Virus record (IMG/VR): IMGVR_UViG_3300013181_000003
Location: 1 to 32,467 of that record
Source of the DNA: a virus
Strand: one strand, 5' to 3'
DNA: 32,467 nt
A program made the position numbers and the translations under genes. Shown piece after piece: positions 1 through 32,467 of this stretch. The number at the start of each line of letters is the position of its first letter. The first letter of the stretch is position 1. A model generated the notes under the pieces. The model was not told where the DNA came from. It searched no databases and saw only the letters and a program-made list of their open reading frames with translations.

Positions 1-14
1 TTTGTTGCTTTCAT
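1..14 (-). CDS. Start of a further gene, cut by the left edge
   Basis: An ATG on the minus strand overlaps the TAA of the preceding small gene (TAATG), the same coupling seen elsewhere in this phage. Only the first four or five codons (M-K-A-T) lie inside the window, so no product can be named. The call rests on the overlap alone. Confidence 0.3.
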
Positions 15-112
15 TACGGTAAATAGTAAGTTAATGTTCCTAATATAATTAAAAATATTAATACTACTATGTAAGTAATAACTGCCCATGTATAAAATTC
101 TTTTTTTTCCAT
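14..112 (-). CDS. Small single-pass membrane protein (32 aa)
   Basis: A 32-residue frame that starts ATG and ends TAA. It has a charged N-terminus (MEKKEF) followed by one hydrophobic helix of about 20 residues rich in Ile, Val and Leu, then a short polar tail. It begins 12 bases after the preceding gene stops, and its stop overlaps the next start. Function is unknown. Its size and topology would fit a phage-encoded membrane peptide. The position inside a packed cistron string is the main support. Confidence 0.5.
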   Translation of the reverse strand: MEKKEFYTWAVITYIVVLIFLIILGTLTYYLP

Positions 113-123
113 ATTCTTTTTTT

Positions 124-327
124 TTATCCATAAAACTGAAGATACATTTTTATAGCATCCTCTTCATTACTTGCATTAAAGCTACTACCAGTATATTTAC
201 CATCTTTGAATATTTTAAACCAAGTAAATCCCATACCATATTGACTATTAAAATAATCTTCCATCGCATCAAAATTTGATTGTTCATTATTATTTTCTCT
301 AATTGCTTTTAAATCTTTAATTTCCAT
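124..327 (-). CDS. Hypothetical protein (67 aa)
   Basis: This small soluble protein begins MEIKDLKAIRE and contains an aromatic stretch (GMGFTWFKIFKDGKYTGSSF) like a two- or three-stranded sheet, followed by a short acidic helix. It is the first gene after the structured terminator that closes the terminase operon. I do not recognise the family. The ATG is preceded by an A/T-rich leader without a Shine-Dalgarno sequence, as is usual here. Confidence 0.6.
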   Translation of the reverse strand: MEIKDLKAIRENNNEQSNFDAMEDYFNSQYGMGFTWFKIFKDGKYTGSSFNASNEEDAIKMYLQFYG

Positions 328-350
328 AGTTATTTGTTTTTTGTTGTTTT

Positions 351-402
351 AAAAAGGTGCTGCCCTTTCGGCCTAGGTTCCTATATGGGTTATCAGCACC
401 TT
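351..402 (-). terminator. Rho-independent terminator with a structured loop, downstream of the large terminase gene
   Basis: On the minus strand a perfect 9-bp stem (AAGGTGCTG, 394-402, with CAGCACCTT, 354-362) is followed by a short U run. The 31-nt apical region is unusually long and GC-rich for this genome. It can form inner pairs (CCC with GGG, and a GAAA-capped GCC/GGC). The U run exists only in minus-strand transcripts, so the element reads as the end of the terminase operon. The rest of the 328-482 gap holds only a weaker imperfect inverted repeat at about 408-436. Confidence 0.6.
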
Positions 403-482
403 GACAAACACATTCATAGCTAATGTAGGTGTTTTTAACAAACTATCAACATTAATTATAAATTTTAACATTTCTTTAACAT

Positions 483-1655
483 TTACCAGATATGATACTC
501 TCCTTTATTAGGATCTTGTAATTGAGATGTTAAAGCATATCTAGCTGCATCTATAGCATGATCTCCAGACATAGGGTTAGGCTTTTGCTGTACATTACCT
601 TGTTTATCTTTTAGCCAAACATAACCTTGTAATTCTTTTATTAAGTTTTTAGATCTCTGTGTGACAAATATTTTATTCTGATTAATTAGATTGATTCCAT
701 ATACAATACTATCTCTTCCTTTGCTAACAGGAAATATCTGATGACCATAACTGTTTAATTCTGCTATTGATTTAGGTTCTGCACTATCTGCCCATATTGC
801 TCCTAGTATATCGTTATTCTTTATGAATTGACTTATGTGTGAGTTTAGCATACCTTTTCTATAGAGTACTTCATCAAATATATATGCATCATCTAGTTTG
901 TATAGTGCTACTAATCCTGCTTCGTCGATACTATATCCGAAATCTAACCCGTGACATAATAATCTAGCATTTGGTGGTATTACTTCTATTTGTTTCCAGT
1001 CAGGTATACATGCTCCTTCTAATGTACCTATCTCTCCTAATCCATAAACTCTCCACCAATTTGCCCAATAAGTGCTGTTAGATGCTTTCTCTCGAGCTTT
1101 CTCAATTTCTTTAACAATACTATCAGGAAGTTGATTATTGTCCTTATAAGTTAATGTAATAAAGTCAGAATCTTCTGTATTAACTAATTCTTTATCTACC
1201 CAGAATAAATTAGTTGGATTATAATCAAGCCAGATGTTTCCAGAAGTACGTATAGATAATTGCTGGTAAGCTTCAAAGGTTACATTGTTACACTCATTAA
1301 TAAACAAATCTGTTCTTCTAGATCCTCTTAACTTATCTGGCTGGTCTGTAGAAAAGAACTCTATATAACTACCATTGCTAAATGTATACTTTAATGTTGT
1401 TCTATTATACTTCTCTTCGTAATATCTGTTTAATCCTTTTAGGATGTTTAGAAAGTCTTTTAATGCTCCTCTTCGTAAATGTGGTACTGATTCTGATACT
1501 ACACTTATCTCGCTTCCTTCATTTCTTATTGCTTGATCTATCAGAATAGATAAAATAGCTATTGTTTTTCCTGCTGATGATCCTCCTCTGACAATCTTAA
1601 CTCTCTTGTCTAGTTTAAGCAGTTTGTCAAACGCTATCGTTTTCTTTACACGCAT
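483..1655 (-). CDS. terL: Terminase large subunit (TerL)
   Basis: The DNA-packaging motor of the phage: an N-terminal ATPase plus a C-terminal RNase H-like headful or end-cutting nuclease. Visible are Walker A RGGSSAGKT (residues 23-31), a Walker B-like strand RTDLFINEC (114-122) and a coupling motif LDYNPTN (143-149). Nuclease acidic residues are D238 in GLDFGY, D290 in WADSAE, and D365 and D369 in SGDHAIDAARYA. The 390-residue length and motif pattern fit the PBSX/Terminase_3 group. The start overlaps the stop of the small-subunit gene (TAATG). Walker B reads N-E where D-E is usual; E121 is present as the likely catalytic carboxylate. Confidence 0.95.
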   Translation of the reverse strand: MRVKKTIAFDKLLKLDKRVKIVRGGSSAGKTIAILSILIDQAIRNEGSEISVVSESVPHLRRGALKDFLNILKGLNRYYEEKYNRTTLKYTFSNGSYIEFFSTDQPDKLRGSRRTDLFINECNNVTFEAYQQLSIRTSGNIWLDYNPTNLFWVDKELVNTEDSDFITLTYKDNNQLPDSIVKEIEKAREKASNSTYWANWWRVYGLGEIGTLEGACIPDWKQIEVIPPNARLLCHGLDFGYSIDEAGLVALYKLDDAYIFDEVLYRKGMLNSHISQFIKNNDILGAIWADSAEPKSIAELNSYGHQIFPVSKGRDSIVYGINLINQNKIFVTQRSKNLIKELQGYVWLKDKQGNVQQKPNPMSGDHAIDAARYALTSQLQDPNKGEYHIW

Positions 1656-9585: not shown

Positions 9586-12500
9586 TTAATTTATTTTAAA
9601 TGCCATATATATAAAGTTTTTTCCTGAATCATTAAATGATGCTGAAGAAAAATTAAGACCTGTATCAGTAGCATATATGTTAGTATCTGATGTTGTTTCA
9701 GCATTAGATGCATTAGCTTTTAATCTTGCGTCAAAAGGTTGCGTATCACCTCTTACACTATCAAGTATAAACCAATCTTGATTGTCATCATACTTTCTTA
9801 ACATTACAAAATCTGGTCTAAATCCTAATGTAACAGTTTGTGATGTTCCATTACCAGAGTAAGTTCCAATCTTGCTATATCCAGATACTGAATGGAAAGC
9901 ATAACCAATATATTCTTCTCCGCTATCATTTAAAGCTTGATTTGCGTGAAATTTAACTGTTGTTGCAGTTGGGTCAAAAGTTACATTAGCTGAATTTGCT
10001 TTAGAATTAATTAGATTTAAAGATAAATAATCTCCTTCTGAAAATCCTGAATATAATACTTGCCAGTTGATTGCACTTCCTGTTAATTGTTTCCCAATCC
10101 ATAGCTCTGGAGCAGATGATAAGCCGTGAGGAACTCTTGTTCCTGTTACACCAGTCCCTTCATATTTAACTATACTAAATCCTGCATTAGCATTTGCACT
10201 AACTATTGATTTTGGTGGAGCACCTAAAGTTAAATCATCATTATCAGATGTGGTTTCTGCATATAAAGCTGCAACACCTATATCAGATACTGCACCATTA
10301 TATATTCTTAATTGGTCTATTTCGCCATCATAAAAACCATTTGAATCATCATCCTTACGAGTACCAATTCTCATATTACCAGTCATTCGCATAGTTGTAG
10401 TGTAACTTTCACCAGTAGTCAAAGCTTTAGAAACCCCATCAATATATATTTTTGCACTTGTGTTTGAAGTTCCATCTACAACTAAAGCAACGTGATGATA
10501 ACTACCATCATATAATGATGATGAATCTGATGCACTCATTGCTGTAAAACCTGCTCCGCTTGTTGTATTGTTAGGAAAAATTCCAAATTTTGTTCCGCTT
10601 GAAGCTAAACCTATTCTATTTGAGTTTACATTAGAATCCCCCTCAAATTGAAATATTGTATGGTCATCATTATATTGTGATGATTTCATCCAAAAACTTA
10701 CAGTAAAACTTGTTTGTTGTGAAAAACTTGTGCTAAAAGTAATTTTACTATTAGTACCATTAAAATCTGCTGCTTTATTAAATTTACCAGTAACATAAGA
10801 TACATTAGAAGCAGTCCCATTATAATCACCTGTTACATCATTCGCATTATCCTCAAATTTATATACTGCTAAAGCTGATCCTCCAAAAATCGTAGGCTCA
10901 TTATCATCGGCTTTCCACGCCCAAGCAACGTAATCCTCACCATTTGCATTTGTATAACTACCAGTACCTGCTACTGTAAACCCATTAGCATCATAAGTTC
11001 TAACGCCATTTGATGCTTCTGCTACTTGTGCTCCAGTAGTATTTGAAGCTAAAGCATTATGCATTCTAATACTATCAAATAATTGATGGTATCTATCTGC
11101 AGTGTTTCTATTTTTAATCCACACAAAATTTGGTTGGAAACCTAACCCATCAATACTTTGTGATGAACCTGTACCTGTATAAGCTACTGTTGTAAAACTT
11201 TTTGCTACTGTTGGTGCTTCTGTGTCAGGGTCTGCAGCAAATGCCATATAGATATATGTATCGCTTGACCTGTTTAATGATTGAGATGATGTTGGTCCTA
11301 CTTGGAAACCATTACTTAAAAAATCTAAATCAAACCCTGATGTATTATTTTCTTCAGCATTACTTGAATTAGCCTTTATGTGTTTTGTTCTTGGGTTTGT
11401 TAGGTTTCTTTTATTATCAAACATTACCCAGTGTGTATTAGCAAATGAAGTGTTTTTTACCATTACAAAAGCAGGTTCAAAACCTGTTTCTATAATAGGT
11501 CTATCATCAGCATCTCCTGTACCTGTGTATGAGCCAAACTTTGAAAAGCCATCGACTGAATTGAAACAGTAGGCAACGTAAGTTTGTCCATTTGTGTTTA
11601 CAGTTACGTCTGTTCCTATTTGATTTGTTGTAGCACTTATCGTTTTATATGCGTTAGTGTCTGTTCCTGCTGCTCCAGTACCTTGTAAATACATATAATT
11701 ACTTGCAGATAAAGAACTTGACCAAACAAGCCAACCCTCTGCAGAGCTTGTTCTTTTTGTAATTATTAAATCTGGTGATTCTGATAATCCGTGACCGTAA
11801 GTGCCTGTGCTACCTGTTCCACTATATGTAACGATTGAAAACCCTGAATCTTGATTTGCTTGTACTGTACTTGTAATCGTTCCATCAGTATTGCTGCTTG
11901 TAGTTCCTCCGTTTGCTTTTAGACACCAAGCTACGAAATCTTGTCCATTAACATTTGATGAACCACTACCATTAAATGTAAAACCGCCTGTATCAAAAGA
12001 AATTAATTTTCCATTTGAATTTTCTGCAACAGTCTCATTAGGGTATATTCTTTTAGTTGCACCTCTTGTTGAATCAAAAACAACGTGATTATATCCTGCT
12101 GCACTTCTTAATTTTAACCAAACAAAATCAGGAGTGAAATTTAATCCGTATTCGTATGAAACATTTGTAGCACTACCATCGTATGCTCTCATATCATCAT
12201 TTGCATTCCCTTCAAATCTATAAGAAGCTACAAGTGAGTTTTCATTATACAATGTAGTTACTTCACTTGCTGATAATGCTTTGTTGAATACTCTAAATTG
12301 GTCTAAATCTGCATTTAAATAATTTGTCGAATAATATGGTCTCCTACCAATAACTGCATCACCTGTTACATTTAAAGTTCTTGTTACAGTACCTTTACTT
12401 TCACTATTTATATATAATGTTATTATAGCATCAGCAGGTGCAGTATCATAAACTAAAACAAAATGATACCATTGTCCAGTTGATAACCCTAAAGATGTTG

Positions 12501-17463: not shown

Positions 17464-17487
17464 AAAAAAAAAGAGGCAAATTGCCTC
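17464..17487 (-). terminator. Rho-independent terminator after the tail-tube-like gene
   Basis: On the minus strand GAGGC (17483-17487) pairs with GCCTC (17473-17477), extendable by AA/TT towards the loop, and is followed at once by a run of nine T. It lies about 30 bases after the stop of the tail-tube-like gene. Confidence 0.8.
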
Positions 17488-17514: not shown

Positions 17515-18063
17515 TTAGAAGTCTGAACCAGATGTTACAGTTACTGTACTAGTTAATCCTCCAAAAGGATCTGCTTCTGTTGCACCTTCTAGGAAGTTAG
17601 CAGGTAATTGCTCTTGACCTGTAAATGTCAATGTATATCCTGAAAGATCTCCCATTGCTGCACCAGTTACTATAGTACCTCCACTACAGTCTGCTCCATG
17701 CTCTGCTCCCATTAAAAACGCATTACCGTTGTAATCTGCAACTACAACATGCGGTCTACCATAAGCTAAAAGTTTAATTTCTTTATGATCTGCTGCTGAT
17801 AATTTTTTTAATGTTAAATTTAATGTTTGCTCAAAGAATGTCGTACCATTCTCTCTTGATGCATTTATTGTTTGTTCGAAAGATGAGTTTCCTTTTAATT
17901 CGTATTTGTATGCTGTTACAGCACCTAAATCATCTATTACATCTGTGTTTGTTGAATCATACGCAATAGTTATGTCTCCATAATCAATGAAGTAAACTGC
18001 TTTAATACCACCAACTACGTCTTTACAAGGTTCTATTCTTCCTTTAGTTAAATCACAAGCCAT
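17515..18063 (-). CDS. Major tail (tube) protein, probable
   Basis: 182 residues starting MACDLTKGRIEPCKDVVGGIKAVYFIDYG, a beginning typical of a protein family found after the capsid gene in Bacteroidetes phages. The body is beta-rich, with YKYELKGNSSFEQTINASRENGTTFFEQTLNLTLKKL and GYTLTFTGQE, the long-strand pattern of tube proteins. The position directly after the major capsid gene and between two strong terminators suggests high expression, as expected for a tube subunit. No direct homology could be tested. Confidence 0.65.
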   Translation of the reverse strand: MACDLTKGRIEPCKDVVGGIKAVYFIDYGDITIAYDSTNTDVIDDLGAVTAYKYELKGNSSFEQTINASRENGTTFFEQTLNLTLKKLSAADHKEIKLLAYGRPHVVVADYNGNAFLMGAEHGADCSGGTIVTGAAMGDLSGYTLTFTGQEQLPANFLEGATEADPFGGLTSTVTVTSGSDF

Positions 18064-18076
18064 ATTTTTTAAGTTT

Positions 18077-18105
18077 AAAAAAAAAGGGTGGTAGAATACA
18101 CCACC
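18077..18105 (-). terminator. Rho-independent terminator between capsid and tail-tube genes
   Basis: On the minus strand GGTGGT (18100-18105) pairs with ACCACC (18087-18092) around a 7-nt loop, followed by C and a run of nine T. An alternative outer pairing, AAGGGT with ACCCTT, is also possible. Only 13 bases separate the T run from the next ATG, so it probably works as a partial terminator with read-through. Confidence 0.7.
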
Positions 18106-18137: not shown

Positions 18138-19085
18138 TTACGAAGTTGCGTATAATACAATATCGCCACCGATTGCGTGCTGGATACCAGCTGTAAATCT
18201 CATTACGATTCTAACGTTTTGAGATCCATCTAGGTCAGCCATATCTAATACTTTTACTTCGTTGTGGTCAGATAATAAACCTGTACCGAAGAATAAGTTA
18301 GATTTTTCTGCTGCTACTGCGTCATTGTCAGATAGACCTGGTGCTAATACAACTGGAATACCGTCAAAGCTTAAACCTTGTCCCATGTTGTACCATTGTG
18401 TACCTCTGTCTCCTGTACCTGCAGCTCCTAAACCAGATGCTCCAAATCCACCTAATGCTCTAACGTAGTTTCTGTACATGTTAGAAGGTAAGTAGATAGT
18501 CATGTCTTCTGCACCGTATACTGCGTTTGGAATTGCATCAGCAATTTTCCCAAGCTCTGTAATAATGTTTGCAGAAGTTGAAGCTGTACCTGTTACGTCA
18601 TTTACGTCTCCGTCTGCACCTAATGTAGTTACGAATCCGTCAAATTCGCCATCAGTTGCATCAGTACCTGTCCAGATGTTTTGCTCGATTTTTTCTGCAA
18701 CTTTACCTGCTACGTGTCCGATTAACCAATCAGAGAAGATAGGAGGCATTTGCTCGTTAATAGTTGAGTAACCCATTTGAACAGCTTCCCAATCTGCTAC
18801 GTAATCTTTTTTACATAACTCAAGGTTTACTTGAAATTCTTCTGGAGTTAAAACTCTTTCAGTTAATGTTAAAACATCAGCTTGACCTGAAAAATCACAT
18901 GCTGCGTTTTTAACAATACTTGTAGAAGCAACTTTTTTCATTACTTCTGATTTCTTTACGTTAGGTCTAATAGTAATTAAACCTTGTGATAAAGTACTTC
19001 CGCTTAATAAAGCAGCTGAAACATACTTACCGGCAAATTCACCAGCGTATGTTGTAGTTATTGATGTTGTTGAACCACTTGCCAT
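18138..19085 (-). CDS. Major capsid protein (HK97-fold, probable)
   Basis: 315 residues directly downstream of an acidic scaffold gene and upstream of tail genes, the standard place of the coat protein. An N-arm rich in Thr/Ser/Gly (1-35) is followed by a helical P-domain-like segment (AGKVAEKIEQNIWTG, about 123-137) and an A-domain-like part with DMTIYLPSNMYRNYVRAL and FDGIPVVLAPGL. The C-terminal strand is NVRIVMRFTAGIQHAIGGDIVLYAT. Base composition is visibly richer in G and C than its neighbours, as expected for a highly expressed gene with selected codons. No protease-type delta domain is present; the scaffold is a separate protein. Confidence 0.85.
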   Translation of the reverse strand: MASGSTTSITTTYAGEFAGKYVSAALLSGSTLSQGLITIRPNVKKSEVMKKVASTSIVKNAACDFSGQADVLTLTERVLTPEEFQVNLELCKKDYVADWEAVQMGYSTINEQMPPIFSDWLIGHVAGKVAEKIEQNIWTGTDATDGEFDGFVTTLGADGDVNDVTGTASTSANIITELGKIADAIPNAVYGAEDMTIYLPSNMYRNYVRALGGFGASGLGAAGTGDRGTQWYNMGQGLSFDGIPVVLAPGLSDNDAVAAEKSNLFFGTGLLSDHNEVKVLDMADLDGSQNVRIVMRFTAGIQHAIGGDIVLYATS

Positions 19086-21742: not shown

Positions 21743-23389
21743 TTAATTCCCTAATGTTGCCTGATTACTTGTCTTTCTATCTAATGCTTGTTGTGTACTT
21801 ATATCTGTACTAACAACATAAGCTCTTACTGGTTTTTGTTGTGCTGTTGCTATAGTTTGTGCTAATTGGCTTGTTTCTGTTGCTCCTACTACATTAAATG
21901 CTGGTGGAGTTGATACAGCTGCTGGTACAGATGCTGTTCCTCCGCCTCCTGTTGCAAAAGCTGGAGGTGCAGGTTCTTTAGTTGATGTTATGTTTTTAAC
22001 ATTTGCAAGACCAGTTGCAATAACTGATGCTGCACCAATAAATCCAAATATACCACCTTGTGCTAATGCTTTGTTAGCTCCTGCATATGTATCTATAATA
22101 GCTTGTGTTATTGCTATAGCTTTTCCAAATTTACTATTTTGTCCTACAAGACCTGCTATTGCTCCAAGTGCACCTGAAACTGCTGCCACTTTAGCGTCTG
22201 CAATTTCTTTATCTCTTTTATTTTCTTGTGCAGTAGATTCTGCTCTAAATTTATTTAATTCGTTTTCTGCATCAATTCTTTCTTGTGTGTTTTCTTTATA
22301 ACTTGCAACTTTTCTTTTTAAAGTTTCTTCTATTTCTTTTCTTTCTGCTGCTTCTATTTCTTTTAGTTTTTCAAGTCTTATTACTTCATTGTCGATTAAT
22401 TCAGCTTCTGCATTATTTGTAATACTTGCTGCCTCTTGTGCACCTTGTGCTCTGCTAAAATCTAACTCTATTAATTCTTTACTTAAAGCAGCTTGATTAG
22501 TTTTTTGTTCTGATCTTTGTCCATCTATTCTTGCTTCAATAGCTGCTAATTCATTTTGAGCGTTTATAAGTTCTACTTGTGCATCAACATTATCTTCATC
22601 TAATGCTAATTTTGCTTTGGCAGCTTGTATACCAATATTTGCATTTTCAATCATTTTCTTTTCTTGCTCATCAAGTATTCTACCCAACTCTTCATTAGCT
22701 GCTATTCTTGATTGAACTGATTCCCTTGTGTCATCTCTTAATTGCCTTTGTTGTTCTGCTTGTCTATCATATTGTTCTATTAATCCTTGATTTGTAGCTT
22801 GTGCTATTTTATATTCTTTATTTAACTCGACAATGTTTTCTGCCTCCTCCATTAACTCATTAACATAATCAGATACAGATCCTGTTAATTCATCTAATAT
22901 TTCTTTCCCTCCTTTTTGTGCTTTGTTAAATTCAATTTGTGCTAACGTTACATCAGCTACTGCTCCAGCAAAATCTAAAGTAAATGCTTTTAACGCTGCT
23001 TTTCCTAAAAAGCCTAATGCTTCTACTGCATCTATTATAGGTTGTTTAATAGAATCTATTATTGCTGCTCCAAAGCTTTTTATGTTATCTATTCCAGAAA
23101 ATAAAAATTTAAATAAATCGTTAAAAGCTAACTTTAATGCTGTTGTGCCTTTTGCAAGAGTATCTACAACTTTTTGATTTGAATTAAAGGTTTGGGATAA
23201 TATTTCTAGTATTTTGTTAAATGCTTTTACAGCTACAGTTCCCTTAAATATATTATTAAGGCTAAACATAGACTTTCCAGCTGCTTTAGCACCTTCTTGG
23301 ATTCCTTTTAGTCCTACACCTACTTGTTGCAGGTTCTTTTCAGCACCTTCTTTTTTAACGTTAATCTCTATGTTTATTTCTTTTGGCAT
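21743..23389 (-). CDS. Tape measure protein
   Basis: 548 residues with the tape-measure make-up. The N-terminus is short and basic. A hydrophobic region at about 90-160 (LFKFLFSGIDNI, AALKAFTLDFAGAVADVT) leads into a long charged coiled-coil stretch (about 165-400, Glu/Lys/Gln-rich). A second hydrophobic part at about 400-465 (VSGALGAIAGLVGQ, IFGFIGAASVIATGLANV) comes next, then a Gly/Ala/Pro linker. The C-terminal segment RAYVVSTDISTQQALDRK is typical of Bacteroidetes phage tape measures. It sets tail length and spans the membrane during DNA entry. Its presence and the lack of sheath genes point to a siphovirus. Confidence 0.85.
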   Translation of the reverse strand: MPKEINIEINVKKEGAEKNLQQVGVGLKGIQEGAKAAGKSMFSLNNIFKGTVAVKAFNKILEILSQTFNSNQKVVDTLAKGTTALKLAFNDLFKFLFSGIDNIKSFGAAIIDSIKQPIIDAVEALGFLGKAALKAFTLDFAGAVADVTLAQIEFNKAQKGGKEILDELTGSVSDYVNELMEEAENIVELNKEYKIAQATNQGLIEQYDRQAEQQRQLRDDTRESVQSRIAANEELGRILDEQEKKMIENANIGIQAAKAKLALDEDNVDAQVELINAQNELAAIEARIDGQRSEQKTNQAALSKELIELDFSRAQGAQEAASITNNAEAELIDNEVIRLEKLKEIEAAERKEIEETLKRKVASYKENTQERIDAENELNKFRAESTAQENKRDKEIADAKVAAVSGALGAIAGLVGQNSKFGKAIAITQAIIDTYAGANKALAQGGIFGFIGAASVIATGLANVKNITSTKEPAPPAFATGGGGTASVPAAVSTPPAFNVVGATETSQLAQTIATAQQKPVRAYVVSTDISTQQALDRKTSNQATLGN

Positions 23390-24408: not shown

Positions 24409-27400
24409 TTATGGACAAGCTGGACATGTTGTTGATGTTAATGTTTGTGTTAAATGATTCCATTGATAATATGTACTAAAGTCAGCTGTAAAGAATTGTG
24501 TTGCACCAAGTGTTGATGAACAAGTATCATTTGAATATATAGCTGTTGCTGTACTTATATCATTTGAATCCATGTAAACTATTTTTGTTACTGTTACGTT
24601 ACAACATACATCTTCTGCTGATATAGCTGATTTATATAATAACTGACTTCCACAAGTAACTGTTGTAGTAGTAGTTGTAGTCGTTGTAGTTGTACAAGAA
24701 CCTGTAATAGTACCATAATCTGTTGGTGTGCTAACTGCACCAGTACCAATAATATCATAACAGTTTGAACCATCTGTAGATATTGTGATGTCAATATCTC
24801 CTACGTTGTATGCTGCATCTAATTGTACATATGTTACAAATGTATCTGACTGTCTTTCTACTACAAATACATTATCTGGTCTAGACGTAGTAGTCGTGGT
24901 AGTAGTCGTAGTTGTAGTTCCAGTACAATCATCACAATTATTAAATCCTTCATAGTCATATGCAGGTTCTCCTCCAACACAAGATTGTTGTAACACCCAG
25001 TCAGTATCTTGGTTTCCTGTACCTGTTGTTGGATTTTTATAACACTCTCCTGTTGATACATCTTTTATAACTGCTGGGAATCCTGCTGATGAATTATTAC
25101 CTACAGTTATTGTAGAATCTAATCCTGTTGCACAATCTACATATTGTCTAAATACTGTAAGTGTTGGTTTTGATGGTATTGCATCACAAGGATCTGTAGT
25201 TGGTTTAGGTGGACAAGATCCTACATTTTCCCATACTTGTAGACTTGATGGTTCATAATATCTATAATTTACTAAATCAGTATAAAATCCTTCTGGTGCT
25301 CTTGCAGGAGTTCCTACATTAGATGCACTTGTGTACATGTGATCATTACTTGTTGCTGTCGATAAAGTTCTGTTGTTATCAAAATAATAATAAGCAAATA
25401 CTCCTTGTGAATCATCACAATATTGATTTAGCACATTCCAACCAGTTCCTAAATAATAAAGTCCATTAGCGTCTATACAATTTATACAAACACTAAAACT
25501 AGAACCATTCCAATATCTTCTTACGGTGTTGTCTGAATCTAATGAATAATGACCAGCTGGTGCTGCTACATTACAATCAGCATAAGTATATATGTTTGTT
25601 ATGTTACAGAAATTGCTTTGCGTTTGAGACAAACTAGCACCATTTACGTAATAATATCCTTTATTTTGTGTATTCTCACATACATCATTAGTAGAAGAAT
25701 ATCTTAAATAGAATGGTGTTTTTGTTGCTAGACATGGATCAGTAGTAGTTGTCCCTGTACACGCATCACAACCTGTTCCTTCTCCATCTCCTACTGTAAT
25801 ACCATTATTTGTTGCCCAATCTGTTTCAAATGCTGTTGCTGATGTATAGTAACATTCATTATTTATAGTTATATATGTTCCTGTTGAACTAGAACCTACT
25901 GTAAAGGTATCTCTTGATCTTACATATACTGTTTGTCCCGCTACTGATTCTCCACTACAACCTGTTACTACATAGTAGTTATATACAATTAGTTGTATTG
26001 TTGCTGCTGAAAAGTCTGTCGTTACAGTTTGACTTGTCGTAAAAGTTCCACCTGCATTGTTTACAGTTGGTGCACCACTTACCCATTCAAATCCTGAATT
26101 TAAACTAATAGTAGTTTGAAAATTAAATACCGTACCTGCGTTTTGTGTTTTAACAGTTCCATCAACATCACCACCTATAGTAAACCCTAAAGATGCTGGT
26201 GAAAATCCAGATGCAGTAATATTTGATGTATCTACAGATAAAGTTACATCTATAAGAGTTTGTGTCGTCCAAATTACTGTGTGTGTATCACTAACAGTAA
26301 CAGATCCATCCGAAGCTGTACAAGTATAAGTATAAGTTCCAGCTGATGTTTCTGTAAATGTTATTGATTGTGTAGATCCACTAGCAGAACCTCCAGACCA
26401 ACTATAACTTGTTGGAGTAAATCCTGTAGGAAGTGCTGTTAATGTTAGATTATTATTTACTGTTTTTTGTGTAGGTCCACCAATAGTTATATACTCCCCA
26501 GTAGATTGTACTGCACCTGATAATGTTGTATTTACAGTTAGGTTACTTGTACCAACAATTCCCTGTGCATTTTGTACTACAGGTCCTGATGTAAACTGGA
26601 AATTTGTATTTGGTGTAACAGTTGTATTAAATGAATATGTTTGACCTTCTTCTAAATCTAAAAAGTCTCCTTGTTGATTACCAGTAATGTTATATCCTGA
26701 CGTTGGTCCTGTAATATTATTTACAATATTTAATGTTATTCTATATTTCTTTGGTGTCCATAAAACAATATGTGTATCTACAAACTCTGCGCTATCATTA
26801 CTATCTGTAGCTGTACATGTATATGTTACGTTACCTGTATTTGCATTTGTTATAGTTACTGATGCAGTTGTTTCTCCTGCTGCTTCACCACCTGCCCATA
26901 AATAACTTGCTGTACCTACAAAGTTATTTGCTGTAGCTGTAAGAGTAATATCATTTGTTTGCTGTGCTGATGTTGGTCCTGTTATAACTAAACTTCTTCC
27001 TACATCACAAGTCGTATCAGCTGTAGGTGTTAAACTATCTACTGTACCTAATGTAGAATCTGCTGTACACTCTTCGCTTACATCAGGATCTGTTGTTGTT
27101 GTGTCTATAGGTGTTGATCCTCCAATAGATACTGTATCTTGGTTTAATAATTCTAATCTTGATCTACCAGTTGTAAAATCAGTTTCTATTTCATTTATTC
27201 TATAGTTTCTATCACTAATAGCAATTATATCTGATAGTATAAACTCCTGCATCATCTTAATAGGAAGATATGCGTGTATTGTTGTTAGTCTTTTATCTAA
27301 TTGAAATACATCTGATATATATGTTTGGTAATATTCTGTAAATAATGTTTTATCAAAATTTGCAAGCTGTGTATATTCGTTTATCTCTTGTTTAAAGTTT

Positions 27401-29199
27401 ATAGCAAACTCACTTTCTGCTGGATCTATATCTACACTATTTAAAGGTATATAGTAATCTGTTATATCATTATATCCACTTGTCTCGCCTGTTAAAAATC
27501 TAATTGTTGTTGCAGATGTTTGTCTATACGCATAAAATAACAATGGACTACCATAATAAGGATCATTATTATCATCTACAAACCATCCTACTTGTGCACT
27601 AATATTTGTACCTGCATCTTGTAGTCTTTCAAACTTCATATGCTCAAAAGGCAATATGATTTCATATGTTTCTGGATTAGCATCATAATAATCATCACCT
27701 CTATAGCTTTCTGTACCCCATCCTGTATTAGATAATTGTTCATGTTGCTTTGCTAGCTTCGTACCTAATCCTTCGTATTTTAAATCTACTTCTTTATAAG
27801 GTAAAGCTGCATCTACACTTGCATCAGTTACATCTACATAATCTGTTATATCCCATACTGTATCTCCATCATAATATTCATCTAATGTCTTAACAACTAT
27901 AACGCCATTTTCAGTATAAGCTGTTAGGTTAAACATTTTAAATATACCAGTTAAGAAATCTATAACTTTTATGTCTGGTATTTGTTCTGAAACCGCAAAT
28001 GTTCTTGTATTGTTAAATGTAAAGCCTCCAGATTGCATAGGATATTCAGCAGCTGAATCTGGATAATATAAAGGATCTAAATCCCATTGTGATGATGTGT
28101 TGAATGTTATAGATGAATCAGATGATTCTACAAACACCTCATATGTTCCATTTGTTAGATAACCATTTATACTCGCTGTAGTGCTATTTGTAACAGTTAC
28201 ACTTAAATCATCTCTTGTATCTCCGTTTTCTTTTATAAATACTTTACCAGAAAAATTAGAATCAGCTACAAGTGTTACAGAGAAGTCTATAAGTCCTGTA
28301 GCGTTTTGCACTACAATTCTATCTCCAAAACTTCCTACTTCTGGAATTTCTTGATAATAATCTATTAAAAAATTAGTTATTCTTTTTGTTACTGCTTGTT
28401 CTTCAAATGCTTTACCCTTTTTTCTATGTAGCCATAAAAATAAATCAAAGTATTTATCATTAGTTGTGTTAAAAAAGTCATTAGAAAATGTAAGACCATA
28501 TTTATCTTCTATAGCTCTTATAATTGCATCTACTGGTATTGCATATTTTAATTCTTCCCAATATACTCCTTGATGACTTGTAGATTTAGGATATAAGTTA
28601 CCTCCACTAGCATCTGGATAATCTGTTGAATCTGCATCTTGATAGTATAGTCTTGTAGTGTGTGATATTAATGGTGCTATTACTCCTCTTGGATAATTTA
28701 TGTCTGTTGTTCTGTCTGGATGTGAATATGTAACCTCTGTGTTAGATGGTGCACCTTTTAATAATAACTCTACAGTTGCTGCATCATAGCTTTTATCAAA
28801 ATCAGATAATTCTAATGAACTTAAGTTGTCATCTCCTAATAAATCGTTTAGATCAATGGTGTTTCCAAAAAAAGTAATTCTATATTGATTAGGTTTACCA
28901 TCTTTTAGATCTACACCATCTAATTTTATTTTACCTGTTTTATAAGGTCTGTGATTTAATTCTATTGTTGCTGACTTTTTTAATCTACCATCAAATCCAT
29001 CAGAAATAGAATAGTTATAATAATGTTCAAATATTTTGTTGTTAGTTTTAGATGCAGGTATATTAAAGGTCCTTGTAAACTCTACAAATATTTTAGAAAT
29101 ATCTCTAACGTTCTGTATTGACTGAACTACGTTTACAGATTCATCTTTAAACAAATCTACTCTTGTTCCTTCTATATATAACTGTAAAACCGCTTTCAT
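24409..29199 (-). CDS. Giant tail-tip/baseplate protein with Ig-like and Cys/Thr-rich modules
   Basis: 1596 residues. Residues 1-690 form a structural part beginning MKAVLQLYIEGTRVDLFKDE, a tail-tip type found downstream of the 29200-30144 homologue in Bacteroidetes phages. After a TTTTDP linker (700-705), residues 735-1070 contain Ig/PKD-like repeats with Y-L-W-A-G-G, S-Y-S-W-S-G-G and YTCTATD/YTCTASD strands. Residues 1075-1596 are Cys-rich modules, several sharing an ECYY/ECYK turn, a DW, and a C-D-x-C-T-G exit. Thr runs follow: four at 1150-1153 and eleven each at 1428-1438 and 1503-1513. It probably carries the host-binding tip of the tail. Confidence 0.7.
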   Translation of the reverse strand: MKAVLQLYIEGTRVDLFKDESVNVVQSIQNVRDISKIFVEFTRTFNIPASKTNNKIFEHYYNYSISDGFDGRLKKSATIELNHRPYKTGKIKLDGVDLKDGKPNQYRITFFGNTIDLNDLLGDDNLSSLELSDFDKSYDAATVELLLKGAPSNTEVTYSHPDRTTDINYPRGVIAPLISHTTRLYYQDADSTDYPDASGGNLYPKSTSHQGVYWEELKYAIPVDAIIRAIEDKYGLTFSNDFFNTTNDKYFDLFLWLHRKKGKAFEEQAVTKRITNFLIDYYQEIPEVGSFGDRIVVQNATGLIDFSVTLVADSNFSGKVFIKENGDTRDDLSVTVTNSTTASINGYLTNGTYEVFVESSDSSITFNTSSQWDLDPLYYPDSAAEYPMQSGGFTFNNTRTFAVSEQIPDIKVIDFLTGIFKMFNLTAYTENGVIVVKTLDEYYDGDTVWDITDYVDVTDASVDAALPYKEVDLKYEGLGTKLAKQHEQLSNTGWGTESYRGDDYYDANPETYEIILPFEHMKFERLQDAGTNISAQVGWFVDDNNDPYYGSPLLFYAYRQTSATTIRFLTGETSGYNDITDYYIPLNSVDIDPAESEFAINFKQEINEYTQLANFDKTLFTEYYQTYISDVFQLDKRLTTIHAYLPIKMMQEFILSDIIAISDRNYRINEIETDFTTGRSRLELLNQDTVSIGGSTPIDTTTTDPDVSEECTADSTLGTVDSLTPTADTTCDVGRSLVITGPTSAQQTNDITLTATANNFVGTASYLWAGGEAAGETTASVTITNANTGNVTYTCTATDSNDSAEFVDTHIVLWTPKKYRITLNIVNNITGPTSGYNITGNQQGDFLDLEEGQTYSFNTTVTPNTNFQFTSGPVVQNAQGIVGTSNLTVNTTLSGAVQSTGEYITIGGPTQKTVNNNLTLTALPTGFTPTSYSWSGGSASGSTQSITFTETSAGTYTYTCTASDGSVTVSDTHTVIWTTQTLIDVTLSVDTSNITASGFSPASLGFTIGGDVDGTVKTQNAGTVFNFQTTISLNSGFEWVSGAPTVNNAGGTFTTSQTVTTDFSAATIQLIVYNYYVVTGCSGESVAGQTVYVRSRDTFTVGSSSTGTYITINNECYYTSATAFETDWATNNGITVGDGEGTGCDACTGTTTTDPCLATKTPFYLRYSSTNDVCENTQNKGYYYVNGASLSQTQSNFCNITNIYTYADCNVAAPAGHYSLDSDNTVRRYWNGSSFSVCINCIDANGLYYLGTGWNVLNQYCDDSQGVFAYYYFDNNRTLSTATSNDHMYTSASNVGTPARAPEGFYTDLVNYRYYEPSSLQVWENVGSCPPKPTTDPCDAIPSKPTLTVFRQYVDCATGLDSTITVGNNSSAGFPAVIKDVSTGECYKNPTTGTGNQDTDWVLQQSCVGGEPAYDYEGFNNCDDCTGTTTTTTTTTTTSRPDNVFVVERQSDTFVTYVQLDAAYNVGDIDITISTDGSNCYDIIGTGAVSTPTDYGTITGSCTTTTTTTTTTTVTCGSQLLYKSAISAEDVCCNVTVTKIVYMDSNDISTATAIYSNDTCSSTLGATQFFTADFSTYYQWNHLTQTLTSTTCPACP

Positions 29200-30147: not shown

Positions 30148-30678
30148 CTATTGTTTTATTGTATAATCTAAAAATTCTTCTATATCTAATCCATAAGCTT
30201 GTCTTAATTCTTGTGGTAATCTTTTAAATCCTTTTTCAAAAGGTTTTGTAAAAAATAAACTTGCTTTAATTCCTTTATTCCATACAGATCTTGATATTAC
30301 ATAAGCTGTAGATTCATAACTAGTAAATCTACCTTTAGCATCTCTAAATTGAAATCTTCTTGCTTCTACCCAGTTTTTAATACCACCTCTTAATCCTCCA
30401 GACTTTCCTGTACCAGAACCAAACTTAAATGGACTTTTAGTAGATTCTGGATATGTGCTTGTTGCTCCTTTTACACCTTCATCTTGAAACTTACCATAAT
30501 CTTCCATCTCAAACTTTAAGCTAAAAGAATTAGGTCCTACATCTAATATACCTTTCAGAGAATTGTAAAGGTCTTTAGATACATTTTTATTACCTCTAGT
30601 TAAATTAGCTCTTGACTGTGAGATAACATAATCTTTAAATGCTTCTAATGCCTTTCTTGTATTCTCGTTGTTTAGCAT
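30148..30678 (-). CDS. Neck/head-tail connector protein (HK97 gp10-like, probable)
   Basis: 176 residues. The opening helix (NTRKALEAFKDYVISQSRAN) leads to NVSKDLYNSLKG and the segment MEDYGKFQDEGVKG (58-71), which is the typical turn of HK97 gp10-like neck proteins (YG-x-FQ-D-x-G). A basic Gly/Ser-rich loop and a final helix with KPFEKGFKRLPQEL follow. It overlaps the next upstream gene by seven bases, as neck proteins often do. Confidence 0.65.
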   Translation of the reverse strand: MLNNENTRKALEAFKDYVISQSRANLTRGNKNVSKDLYNSLKGILDVGPNSFSLKFEMEDYGKFQDEGVKGATSTYPESTKSPFKFGSGTGKSGGLRGGIKNWVEARRFQFRDAKGRFTSYESTAYVISRSVWNKGIKASLFFTKPFEKGFKRLPQELRQAYGLDIEEFLDYTIKQ

Positions 30679-31127
30679 ATTGTCATATCGTTTTGTACTT
30701 GTACATCAAATGTTGCTACCCATCCTGCTAGCTTGTTTTCAAATCTGTCTGTAAATGGTTCACATGCTACATCTACTTCTACTTGGTATTTATCTGTATA
30801 TAAATCTCCTCTTTGTAATAATGCTACTAATCTGTCTAATACTCCTAATTGTGTGTTTAACACATCTTGCTCATTGTCGTTACCTACAAATAAATCTGTT
30901 GTTTCGTCTTTGCTTATATCTACAATGTCCATACACATAACAGAAATATTAAACGTAAGTACTTTTGTATTTATAGTACATTGATTAACCATTATGTGTG
31001 ATAATGGAAATATTGTTTGCTTATTAAGATCTACATTATCGAAGCTACCATAAGAAACAGTATTAACAAATGGTTCTGCTTCTAGTGTGTCTTTTATCTT
31101 TTTAGTTATGTTGTAAAATCCTGTCAT
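30672..31127 (-). CDS. Tail completion/terminator-like protein (probable)
   Basis: 151 residues, alpha/beta, with VNTVSYGSFDNVDLNKQTIF (about 21-40) and a central strand INTKVLTFNISVMCMDIVD. A helix NTQLGVLDRLVALLQRG follows, then a closing beta segment GWVATFDVQVQN. This layout resembles tail terminator proteins that cap the tube; the family occurs in Bacteroidetes phages. The ATG overlaps the stop of the frameshifted chaperone (ATGA), linking it to tail assembly. Confidence 0.6.
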   Translation of the reverse strand: MTGFYNITKKIKDTLEAEPFVNTVSYGSFDNVDLNKQTIFPLSHIMVNQCTINTKVLTFNISVMCMDIVDISKDETTDLFVGNDNEQDVLNTQLGVLDRLVALLQRGDLYTDKYQVEVDVACEPFTDRFENKLAGWVATFDVQVQNDMTIC

Positions 31128-31872
31128 GCTGTTTTATGTTTTATTATGTTCTTTTCTGTTTCTAATTTATCTTGCTCATATGCTAAATATAAAAATGCTT
31201 CATGCATATTTATTTCACTAACTTCATTAATTTTGGTTGCATTTCCTCCAGCCAATCTATATAGCGAGTTATACCATCCCCACTTCCTAGCAAAGTTTCC
31301 CTCTGATGAGAGGTAAGTTTCGCTATTACCTCCTGATTCAAAGATTTCAGGATAGTTTTCAATAACTCGTTCTTTAAATTGTAAAAAAAAAGTATAGAAC
31401 CCATAACTATGTCTAGAGGCATCTGCTTAAATTTCTCTGAATCCTGACTGCCTTCATAGTCTTTTATAATGTATTTGTCTTTATATGTATCTTTGATTGG
31501 TCTGTATAATACTGACATTGCTTTATGCATGTTGCTCCAGTCTCCTAAAGTTTTATCTAAATCAATATATTCTCCTAATGATATTTTATCTAGGTCTGGA
31601 ATAAACCCATAACTAACACCATCCATTGTAAATGTAGGCACAAGCTTAACGTCTTGTGAAAATAGATCATTAATCATATTTGAGACTTTAATGACACTAT
31701 TAAACTCTACCTTAATTACCTGCTGTAAGTTTAAATTACAAAATATCTCTACAGTCTTGTGTAATAAGAAATTACTATTTTGATTGTCTTCTGTATTAAT
31801 ACTATGATACTTCTGATATTGTTCTAAACTAATCTCTCTTAAAGATTCTGGAACTTGTATTGTAACTTTCAT
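31124..31872 (-). CDS. Tail assembly chaperone, -1 frameshift product (249 aa)
   Basis: If ribosomes slip one base back on the T9 run (minus strand; 31383-31391) after residue Phe163, they enter a second open frame and continue for 86 codons to TGA at 31124. The added part reads like a real folded protein: FARKWGWYNSLYRLAGG, then INEVSEINMHEAFLYLAYE and a Lys/Glu-rich tail. This W-G-W-Y ... LA-G ... E-x-F-x-Y-L-A-Y pattern is that of the T part of lambda-type G/GT chaperones. The stop overlaps the next gene's start. A sequencing error in the homopolymer would be an alternative, but both frames past the run look protein-coding. Confidence 0.65.
31210..31872 (-). CDS. Tail assembly chaperone, zero-frame product (220 aa)
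   Basis: A 220-residue alpha-rich protein. The middle DLDKISLGEYIDLDKTLGDW (93-112), followed by HKAMSVLYRPI, belongs to a type I have seen in Bacteroidetes phage tail modules. After LFFYNL (161-166) the zero frame continues with a charged helical tail and stops at 31210. The gene would supply the short (G-like) chaperone, while slippage yields the longer GT-like form. It follows the leader TATTGTTATAAT-ATG and is the first gene after the terminator at 31908-31937. Confidence 0.65.
   Translation of the reverse strand: MKVTIQVPESLREISLEQYQKYHSINTEDNQNSNFLLHKTVEIFCNLNLQQVIKVEFNSVIKVSNMINDLFSQDVKLVPTFTMDGVSYGFIPDLDKISLGEYIDLDKTLGDWSNMHKAMSVLYRPIKDTYKDKYIIKDYEGSQDSEKFKQMPLDIVMGSILFFYNLKNELLKTILKSLNQEVIAKLTSHQRETLLGSGDGITRYIDWLEEMQPKLMKLVK
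31383..31391 (-). promoter_or_regulatory. Slippery T9 run for programmed -1 frameshifting
   Basis: On the minus strand nine consecutive T follow a C. In the zero frame they are read CTT TTT TTT TAC. A one-base backward slip keeps Phe pairing in both ribosomal sites (T-TTT-TTT heptamer). The -1 frame is open from about 31426 to 31124. I see no clear stimulatory hairpin just downstream. Confidence 0.6.
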
Positions 31873-31907
31873 ATTATAACAATAAATATTGTTGTTTTTT
31901 GTATAAT

Positions 31908-31937
31908 AAAAAAAGAGGACTATTTCTAATCCTCTTT
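31908..31937 (-). terminator. Rho-independent terminator before the tail operon
   Basis: On the minus strand AAAGAGGA (31930-31937) pairs perfectly with TCCTCTTT (31912-31919) over a 10-nt loop, followed by a T run (seven T). It lies about 35 bases after the preceding gene's stop, in the 31873-31971 gap. Confidence 0.8.
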
Positions 31938-31971
31938 AAACAAAATTAAATATGAAAAAAAACTATTTTAA

Positions 31972-32217
31972 TTAATAGTTATCCCTTTTGACTTTACTTT
32001 GTCTTGCTATAGATTCGTTTGCTCTGTCATATGCCCACTTATAAGCTTCTGCTATTTTGTCTAATAATTCTTGTGTATGTTGTTTAAATACTTGTGTGCC
32101 TTTCTTTATTTGTCCTTTATAATTCATTACAAGTATTACATTAGGATTTTTTCCAGATGTTAACGGTTGACGATAAACTCTTATATCGTTTTTAATACAC
32201 CATTTGAAAATCTCCAT
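31972..32217 (-). CDS. Hypothetical protein (81 aa)
   Basis: From ATG 32217 the protein reads MEIFKWCIKNDIRVYRQPLT, then a strand NVILVMNYKGQIKKG and a helix ELLDKIAEAYKWAYDRAN, an alpha/beta layout with a basic tail. A TTG 60 bases upstream would add 20 very basic residues and overlap the previous gene by 86 bases, so I prefer the ATG. No family is recognised. It ends the transcription unit before the tail operon. Confidence 0.6.
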   Translation of the reverse strand: MEIFKWCIKNDIRVYRQPLTSGKNPNVILVMNYKGQIKKGTQVFKQHTQELLDKIAEAYKWAYDRANESIARQSKVKRDNY

Positions 32218-32392
32218 CTCTCTCTGGTGTTGTTTTTTTGTTTTTATTTCTAGCGATTTCTTCTTCAAGTTCTTCAATTACTTTTAAAAGTTTTTTAGTT
32301 ATTCTTATTGATGATCCTTGTGTAAGGTCTCCATGATGAAATAGTTCGTACTGAACTAATACAAGTTTCTTTCTAGCTTCCTCTAATGACAT
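32192..32392 (-). CDS. Hypothetical helical protein (66 aa)
   Basis: A 66-residue, mostly helical charged protein: MSLEEARKKLVLVQYELF, then a short loop (HHGDLTQGSS) and a second helix TKKLLKVIEELEEEIARNKN, suggesting an antiparallel helical hairpin. It overlaps its upstream neighbour by 20 bases and the next gene by 26. Function is unknown. Confidence 0.55.
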   Translation of the reverse strand: MSLEEARKKLVLVQYELFHHGDLTQGSSIRITKKLLKVIEELEEEIARNKNKKTTPERDGDFQMVY

Positions 32393-32467
32393 AAAATAAA
32401 AAGTTTGTTAGCATTATCATCCAGAAAGTAAATTGAGGTAATCCCCATACAATATACTTTATTATTC
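32373..32467 (-). CDS. C-terminal part of a small membrane protein, cut by the right edge
   Basis: An open minus-strand frame enters from the right edge and ends at TAG (32373). The visible 30 residues are hydrophobic and aromatic (KYIVWGLPQFTFWMIMLTNF, then FYVIRGS), a transmembrane segment with a short basic end. It overlaps the next gene's start by 20 bases. The start lies outside the window. Confidence 0.5.
   Translation of the reverse strand, partial: IIKYIVWGLPQFTFWMIMLTNFLFYVIRGS

What the first reader, a model, noticed from the sequence alone, without database searches (positions are those of the whole stretch)
31124..31872. Probable programmed -1 frameshift in the tail assembly chaperone gene
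A T9 run (minus strand, 31383-31391) sits inside the 220-residue frame. The -1 frame is open from about 31426 to 31124, roughly 300 bases, and encodes a protein-like tail (WGWYNSLYRLAGG ... HEAFLYLAYE) that stops in an ATGA overlap with the next gene. Both frames past the run look coding, as in lambda G/GT. Ordinary gene calling shows only the 220-residue product or a 27-residue remnant at 31124-31207. The gene also lies about 8 kb before the tape measure rather than right next to it.
Basis: partly seen in the sequence, partly recalled or inferred. Interest (0 to 1): 0.8.

Follow-up and report, generated by a model that had tools for sequence, protein, structure and literature searches.

The report
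Frameshifting tail-chaperone gene at T9 run
A phage gene makes two proteins, a short one and a longer one read partly in a second frame, by slipping on a run of nine Ts that hundreds of relatives keep almost without exception; the pattern suggests the RNA-copying enzyme slips rather than, or as well as, the ribosome.

Summary
All 298 relatives with both halves keep two overlapping frames joined at a T run. In 296 the second half lies in the -1 frame behind at least nine Ts; the exceptions are one T8 (frame relation kept) and one T11 (frame relation changed). The T9 also stands in the cultured Nonlabens phage P12024L, where the halves are annotated as two hypothetical genes. Substitutions show purifying selection on both frames in the overlap and on the -1 frame only from the run onwards. 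Distant phages (Duneviridae and others) encode the joined protein as one uninterrupted ORF, without a T run, so the 249-residue fusion is the natural long protein. So this is programmed recoding, with predicted 220- and 249-residue products. 'Tail assembly chaperone' is well supported but inferred. The mechanism is open: run length (>=9) is conserved across three registers, no structure or Shine-Dalgarno stimulator is found, and nine is the published threshold for RNA polymerase slippage. Transcriptional slippage is therefore favoured (about 0.6) over pure -1 ribosomal frameshifting. New variant of a known kind.

The parts
31210..31872 (-). Frame-0 ORF, 220 aa: short product. Residues 1 to about 163 are shared with the long product; the tail after the run is 57 aa
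   Evidence: phrog_32199 (unknown function) E 1.8e-19; AlphaFold2 pLDDT about 83-95 by 10-residue block to residue 170, then falling
31383..31391 (-). T9 slip site, read CTT TTT TTT TAC in frame 0; holds heptamer T_TTT_TTT
   Evidence: T>=9 in 296/298 relatives
31124..31390 (-). -1-frame extension (FFLQFKERV...KWGWYNSLYRLAGG...KHKTA, stop), giving the 249-aa long product; whole -1 frame open from 31426
   Evidence: conserved KWGWY and C-terminal helix; selection
31210..31382 (-). Stretch coding in two frames at once (frame-0 tail and -1 extension)
   Evidence: synonymous excess in both frames across 68 disjoint pairs: z 6.5 (frame 0) and 16.8 (-1)
31124..31127 (-). ATGA overlap of the extension's stop with the next gene's start
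30672..31127 (-). Next gene, 151 aa, directly after the recoded gene in nearly all relatives where it could be traced; tail-terminator-like by size and position only
   Evidence: synteny; phrog_30964, unknown function
483..1655 (-). Terminase large subunit, which lies directly upstream of the recoded gene in relatives; the window is cut between the two
   Evidence: Pfam Terminase_3, Terminase_3C; synteny
21743..23389 (-). Probable tape measure protein, 548 aa
   Evidence: phrog_3336 E 2.5e-5 and phrog_1538 E 0.0021, both tape measure; better-scoring hits are to unknown or other structural families

Best explanation
The gene encodes a two-form tail assembly chaperone. Standard expression gives the 220-aa short form. 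On the T9 run, RNA polymerase slips and puts an extra U into part of the mRNAs (U10, or other lengths that restore the -1 frame); ordinary translation of these gives a 249-aa long form with a helical C-terminal domain. The T_TTT_TTT heptamer that every T9 run contains may let ribosomes add to this. The short:long ratio would then govern loading of the tape measure and tail tube, as G:GT does in lambda. Shown here: the architecture, its conservation, selection on both frames, the run-length rule and the homology of the fusion. Inferred: that both proteins are made, the polymerase as slipping agent, and the chaperone role.
For: (1) All 298 relatives holding both halves are split in frame at a T run; 296 have the C half in the -1 frame and T>=9 (275 T9, 18 T10, 3 T12). 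(2) Both frames are under purifying selection in the overlap; the -1 frame is not, upstream. (3) In 77 of 125 diverse representatives the -1 ORF has no ATG/GTG/TTG from its opening to 60 nt past the run, and 4 have an ATG, so internal initiation is unlikely. (4) Run length is conserved, not register: Ts up to the end of the last TTT codon plus Ts after it are 8+1 (102), 9+0 (7), 8+2 (7), 9+1 (5), 11+1 (2), 7+2 (2); none totals under 9 against 8.0 expected on permutation (0 of 100,000 reach this). Losing the downstream T and losing an upstream T each arose twice on the tree, always compensated. (5) The two Phe codons are TTT in all 125, while three other conserved Phe codons use TTC in 21-30% with 23-28 changes on the same tree; for most, C at the last position would be silent in both frames. 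(6) No structure around the run; purine-rich upstream motif in 11 of 102. (7) Nine A/T is the published threshold for bacterial transcriptional slippage, and a run of Us in Shigella mxiE gains a base to join two ORFs (PMC1088944; PMC5009743). (8) The fused family aligns end to end with single-ORF proteins of Duneviridae, Bacteroides and Microcystis phages (hhalign 98%, E 2.6e-14), upstream of an annotated tape measure in two and without a T run.
Against: No RNA or protein data. Any T9 also holds T_TTT_TTT, so ribosomal slippage is possible at every site. TTT is expected to slip better than TTC on the ribosome too (own knowledge), so point 5 does not discriminate. The run-length rule rests on four independent compensated losses, and L284 has T8. 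The representatives of point 4 are related, so the permutation figure overstates the strength. The tail role rests on remote homology and gene order; Pfam and PDB searches gave no tail chaperone.
Confidence: 0.6

Rival explanations
1. Classical -1 programmed ribosomal frameshifting at T_TTT_TTT, as in lambda G/GT: two tRNA-Phe slip back together on a plain mRNA.
For: Every site holds an in-register T_TTT_TTT, also L284 with T8; tail chaperone genes are a classic -1 PRF site (PMC5009743); two tail-chaperone frameshift genes measured at 6-7% (PMC3711429).
Against: A heptamer needs T7; totals of 7 or 8 are absent in 125 representatives though three registers occur. No downstream structure and few Shine-Dalgarno-like sequences.
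Confidence: 0.33
2. Sequencing or assembly indel in a homopolymer: the gene is really one continuous ORF.
For: T runs are error-prone; Flavobacterium phage 6H shows such a break where its near relatives are continuous; distant homologues are single ORFs.
Against: 296 of 298 contigs keep the same frame relation, as does a cultured phage. The frame-0 tail past the run is itself under selection.
Confidence: 0.01
3. Two separate proteins: the extension is translated on its own by internal start or re-initiation.
For: P12024L annotates the second half as its own gene overlapping the first stop.
Against: -1-frame selection starts at the run, ahead of such starts; most -1 ORFs lack a start there; distant relatives encode both halves as one chain.
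Confidence: 0.03
4. The recoding is real but the protein is not a tail assembly chaperone; it serves packaging or neck assembly beside the terminase.
For: The gene directly follows TerL and lies far from the tape measure; no Pfam or PDB match.
Against: Single-ORF homologues lie two genes before (Ingeline) or about 5 kb before (laban) an annotated tape measure; Foldseek finds a protein annotated tail assembly chaperone (A0A8S5V8Z8, E 5.7e-3).
Confidence: 0.15

Closest known systems
Lambda gpG/gpGT and other frameshifted tail assembly chaperones
   Same: Short form plus a longer form through a shift into the -1 frame near the end of the gene; small helix-rich protein in the late region of a tailed phage
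   Different: Homopolymer T>=9 instead of a mixed heptamer; no stimulator found; next to the terminase, not between tail tube and tape measure; no detectable sequence similarity to Pfam families
Shigella mxiE and Thermus dnaX transcriptional slippage at nine U/A
   Same: Run of about nine, indels in mRNA give a second protein; mxiE gains a base at a run of Us to join two overlapping ORFs
   Different: Cellular genes; slippage shown there by experiment, only inferred here
Nonlabens phages P12024L/P12024S genes (P12024L_40 and _41)
   Same: Direct homologue at about 31% identity; T9 and -1 frame verified in P12024L
   Different: Annotated as two hypothetical proteins; frame-0 product 175 aa, so a much shorter tail after the run
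Single-ORF proteins of Flavobacterium phages 2A and laban6-1, Cellulophaga phage Ingeline, Bacteroides phage BT-TP2
   Same: Both halves, aligned end to end by profile comparison
   Different: One uninterrupted frame, no T run, so long form only

Membership tests
Frameshifted tail assembly chaperone (lambda G/GT kind) | Two overlapping ORFs, second in -1 frame, joined at a conserved slippery site | tested here: met
Frameshifted tail assembly chaperone (lambda G/GT kind) | Both frames under selection as protein | tested here: met
Frameshifted tail assembly chaperone (lambda G/GT kind) | Gene directly upstream of the tape measure gene (usual, not universal) | tested here: not met
   7.7 kb away, follows TerL; single-ORF homologues are nearer the tape measure
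Frameshifted tail assembly chaperone (lambda G/GT kind) | Sequence or fold match to a known tail chaperone | tested here: inconclusive
   no Pfam or PDB match; one predicted viral structure annotated tail assembly chaperone, E 5.7e-3
Frameshifted tail assembly chaperone (lambda G/GT kind) | Short form binds tape measure; ratio needed for tails | not testable with these tools
   needs experiment
Programmed -1 ribosomal frameshift | X_XXY_YYZ heptamer in register | tested here: met
   T_TTT_TTT at the sites; any T9 contains it
Programmed -1 ribosomal frameshift | Stimulatory RNA structure or Shine-Dalgarno-like element | tested here: not met
   mean z near 0 around the run (no pseudoknot prediction was made); 11/102 with purine motif; stimulators are usual, not obligatory
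Programmed transcriptional slippage | Homopolymer A/T run of about 9 or more conserved as such | tested here: met
   threshold from PMC1088944
Programmed transcriptional slippage | Heterogeneous mRNA lengths at the run | not testable with these tools
   needs RNA data

The most novel reading that the evidence does not exclude
In a large, almost uncultured group of mainly marine, probably flavobacterial phages, the ratio of the two tail-chaperone forms is set by RNA polymerase slippage on a conserved run of nine or more Ts instead of by ribosomal frameshifting: the same two-product output as lambda G/GT, reached at a different step of expression, in a gene that distant relatives keep whole.
Probability: 0.58. 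Interest if true: 0.72.

Novelty: new variant of a known kind. Interest (0 to 1): 0.57.

Why it matters
Tail chaperone frameshifting is a textbook case of a conserved output. A whole phage group that gets it through a T>=9 run, possibly at transcription, would parallel the two routes known for dnaX (ribosomal in E. coli, transcriptional in Thermus) and would be directly testable in P12024L, a cultured phage. It also gives a likely name to two separate 'unknown' PHROG families (32199 and, weakly, 38404) that are one gene, and supplies single-ORF relatives for comparing long-only with two-form systems.

Tried and rejected
Indel error and phase variation: rejected. Independent start in the -1 frame: disfavoured. 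Stimulatory RNA structure: none found. Pfam and PDB sequence and fold searches of the frame-0 product, and a second-look PDB alignment of the extension: no informative match. A profile scan with the extension alone had no column block conserved enough. Flavobacterium phage 6H looked like another frameshifted relative, but near relatives are continuous, so its breaks are probably errors. The literature library held no paper describing transcriptional slippage in a tail chaperone gene; the three papers listed that hold both terms are a review, a prediction tool and a survey.

Full report
WHAT IS THERE. On the minus strand, 31872-31210 is a 220-codon ORF. It contains T9 at 31391-31383, read CTT TTT TTT TAC. 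The -1 frame is open from 31426 to 31124 and a -1 shift on the run gives a 249-aa protein ending in an ATGA overlap with the next gene (30672-31127).

IS IT REAL. A scan of IMG/VR with the fused protein gave 57 relatives at 35-81% identity in the best segment; every one has exactly T9 at the site, as does the cultured Nonlabens phage P12024L, whose two halves are annotated as separate hypothetical genes. Three further scans and a genome scan brought the set to 301 loci plus the window. Some of these are the same contig fetched twice with different flanks; unique sequences and representatives were used for the statistics below (239 unique, 125 below 85% nucleotide identity). Splitting the family profile at the junction and searching all forward frames gave both halves in 298: 296 have the C half in the -1 frame behind T9 (275), T10 (18) or T12 (3); L284 has T8 with the same frame relation; L256 has T11 with the other relation and may be an error. 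The background rate of A/T runs >=9 in the same DNA is about one per 22 kb.

BOTH FRAMES CODE. In 68 disjoint pairs of close relatives, substitutions upstream of the run are synonymous in frame 0 far above expectation (0.66 against 0.24) and depleted of -1-frame synonyms. In the overlap they exceed expectation in both frames (frame 0: 0.35 against 0.28, z 6.5; -1: 0.45 against 0.25, z 16.8) and not in +1. After the frame-0 stop only the -1 frame shows it (0.64 against 0.25). Selection on the -1 frame alone would deplete frame-0 synonyms, as it does past the stop, so the frame-0 tail is selected in its own right; finer windows agree, though the middle one (60-120 nt) is weak for frame 0. The nine sites of the run hardly varied in the 68 pairs: none of the eight bases before the end of the last TTT codon changed. 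Some nearly invariant frame-0 residues (the GxG near residue 198) are imposed by KWGWY in the other frame, a caution against reading frame-0 conservation by eye. An internal start is unlikely: 77 of 125 representatives have no ATG, GTG or TTG in the -1 ORF up to 60 nt past the run, and the -1 constraint begins at the run.

THE LONG PROTEIN IS A KNOWN SHAPE. Foldseek with the two half-models found viral proteins of 240-267 aa that match both halves in one chain, for example A0A516L611. Via the match to Flavobacterium phage 6H, single-ORF relatives were found in phages 2A, laban6-1, Ingeline, BT-TP2 and a Microcystis phage. Profile comparison of the fused family with these five gives 98% probability, E 2.6e-14 for one comparison, over 222 columns that run through the junction. 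The frame-0 product alone aligns only to about residue 175, soon after the run, and the extension alone aligns weakly at the matching place. These relatives have no T run at the junction. So where the halves share a frame there is no run, and where they are split there is.

WHICH STEP SLIPS. A ribosomal -1 shift needs only T_TTT_TTT, seven Ts. The run was divided into Ts up to the end of the last TTT codon and Ts after it: 8+1 in 102 representatives, 9+0 in 7, 8+2 in 7, 9+1 in 5, 11+1 in 2, 7+2 in 2; no total falls below nine, against 8.0 expected when the two counts are shuffled. On a tree built without the junction, loss of the downstream T arose twice and loss of an upstream T twice, each time made good on the other side; four events are too few for a formal sign test. 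All three possible registers occur, so length matters, not register. The two Phe codons are TTT in 125 of 125, while other conserved Phe codons switch between TTT and TTC 23-28 times on the same tree; in most representatives a C at the last position would be silent in both frames. No RNA structure and few Shine-Dalgarno-like sequences accompany the site. Published work puts efficient bacterial RNA polymerase slippage at nine A or T, and describes joining of two ORFs by an inserted base at a run of Us in mxiE (PMC1088944; PMC5009743). I therefore favour transcriptional slippage, with ribosomal slippage as rival or helper. T8 in L284 and the lack of any RNA data keep this open.

WHAT THE PROTEIN DOES. 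The order TerL, (the 31972 gene, in the nearer relatives), this gene, g30672, g30148, g29200, g24409 is conserved; the window is cut between TerL at its left end and this gene at its right end. The distance from the tape measure is shared by P12024L if its gene 50 is the tape measure (its size, 686 aa, equals the length of phrog_32985, the best match of the window's 548-aa protein). In Ingeline and laban the single-ORF homologue lies upstream of an annotated tape measure gene and is followed by a gene of about 150 aa as here. One predicted structure among the matches is annotated tail assembly chaperone. The two-product architecture in a late gene is itself typical. The role is therefore likely but inferred. 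PHROGs file the halves apart: phrog_32199 (clear match) and phrog_38404 (weak, E 0.039), both of unknown function.

VERDICT. Real, conserved, unannotated programmed recoding; a new variant of the tail chaperone frameshift, probably working at transcription.

Noticed in passing
window 1-1655 and 31210-32467: The window looks like a circularly permuted genome cut between TerL (left end) and the recoded gene (right end): relatives have TerL directly upstream of the gene. No end repeat was reported for the record.
   Followed up: partly
L303 (Flavobacterium phage 6H, KC959568) 10068-10927: The chaperone-like gene appears broken in frame in the deposited 6H sequence, while phages 2A, 23T and FPSV relatives are continuous; probably sequencing errors.
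   Followed up: partly
L256 junction at about 3487: T11 instead of T9, changing the frame relation to +1; either an assembly error or a gene relying on a one-base deletion in the transcript.
   Followed up: no
L284 junction at about 3476: The only T8 (GGT TTT TTT TCT) among 298 loci with both halves; a natural test of how short the run may be.
   Followed up: no
window 24409-29199: 1596-aa protein with long poly-threonine stretches (TTTTTTTTTTT) near its C-terminus.
   Followed up: no
window 17464-17472 and 18077-18085: T9 runs (minus strand) just after the ends of the genes at 17515-18063 and 18138-19085, between genes; likely parts of terminators.
   Followed up: no
BFVD A0A516L611, A0A516L5A8, A0A6J5N0W0: Viral proteins of 258-267 aa holding both halves in one chain; could be true single-ORF relatives or homopolymer errors in the source assemblies.
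   Followed up: no
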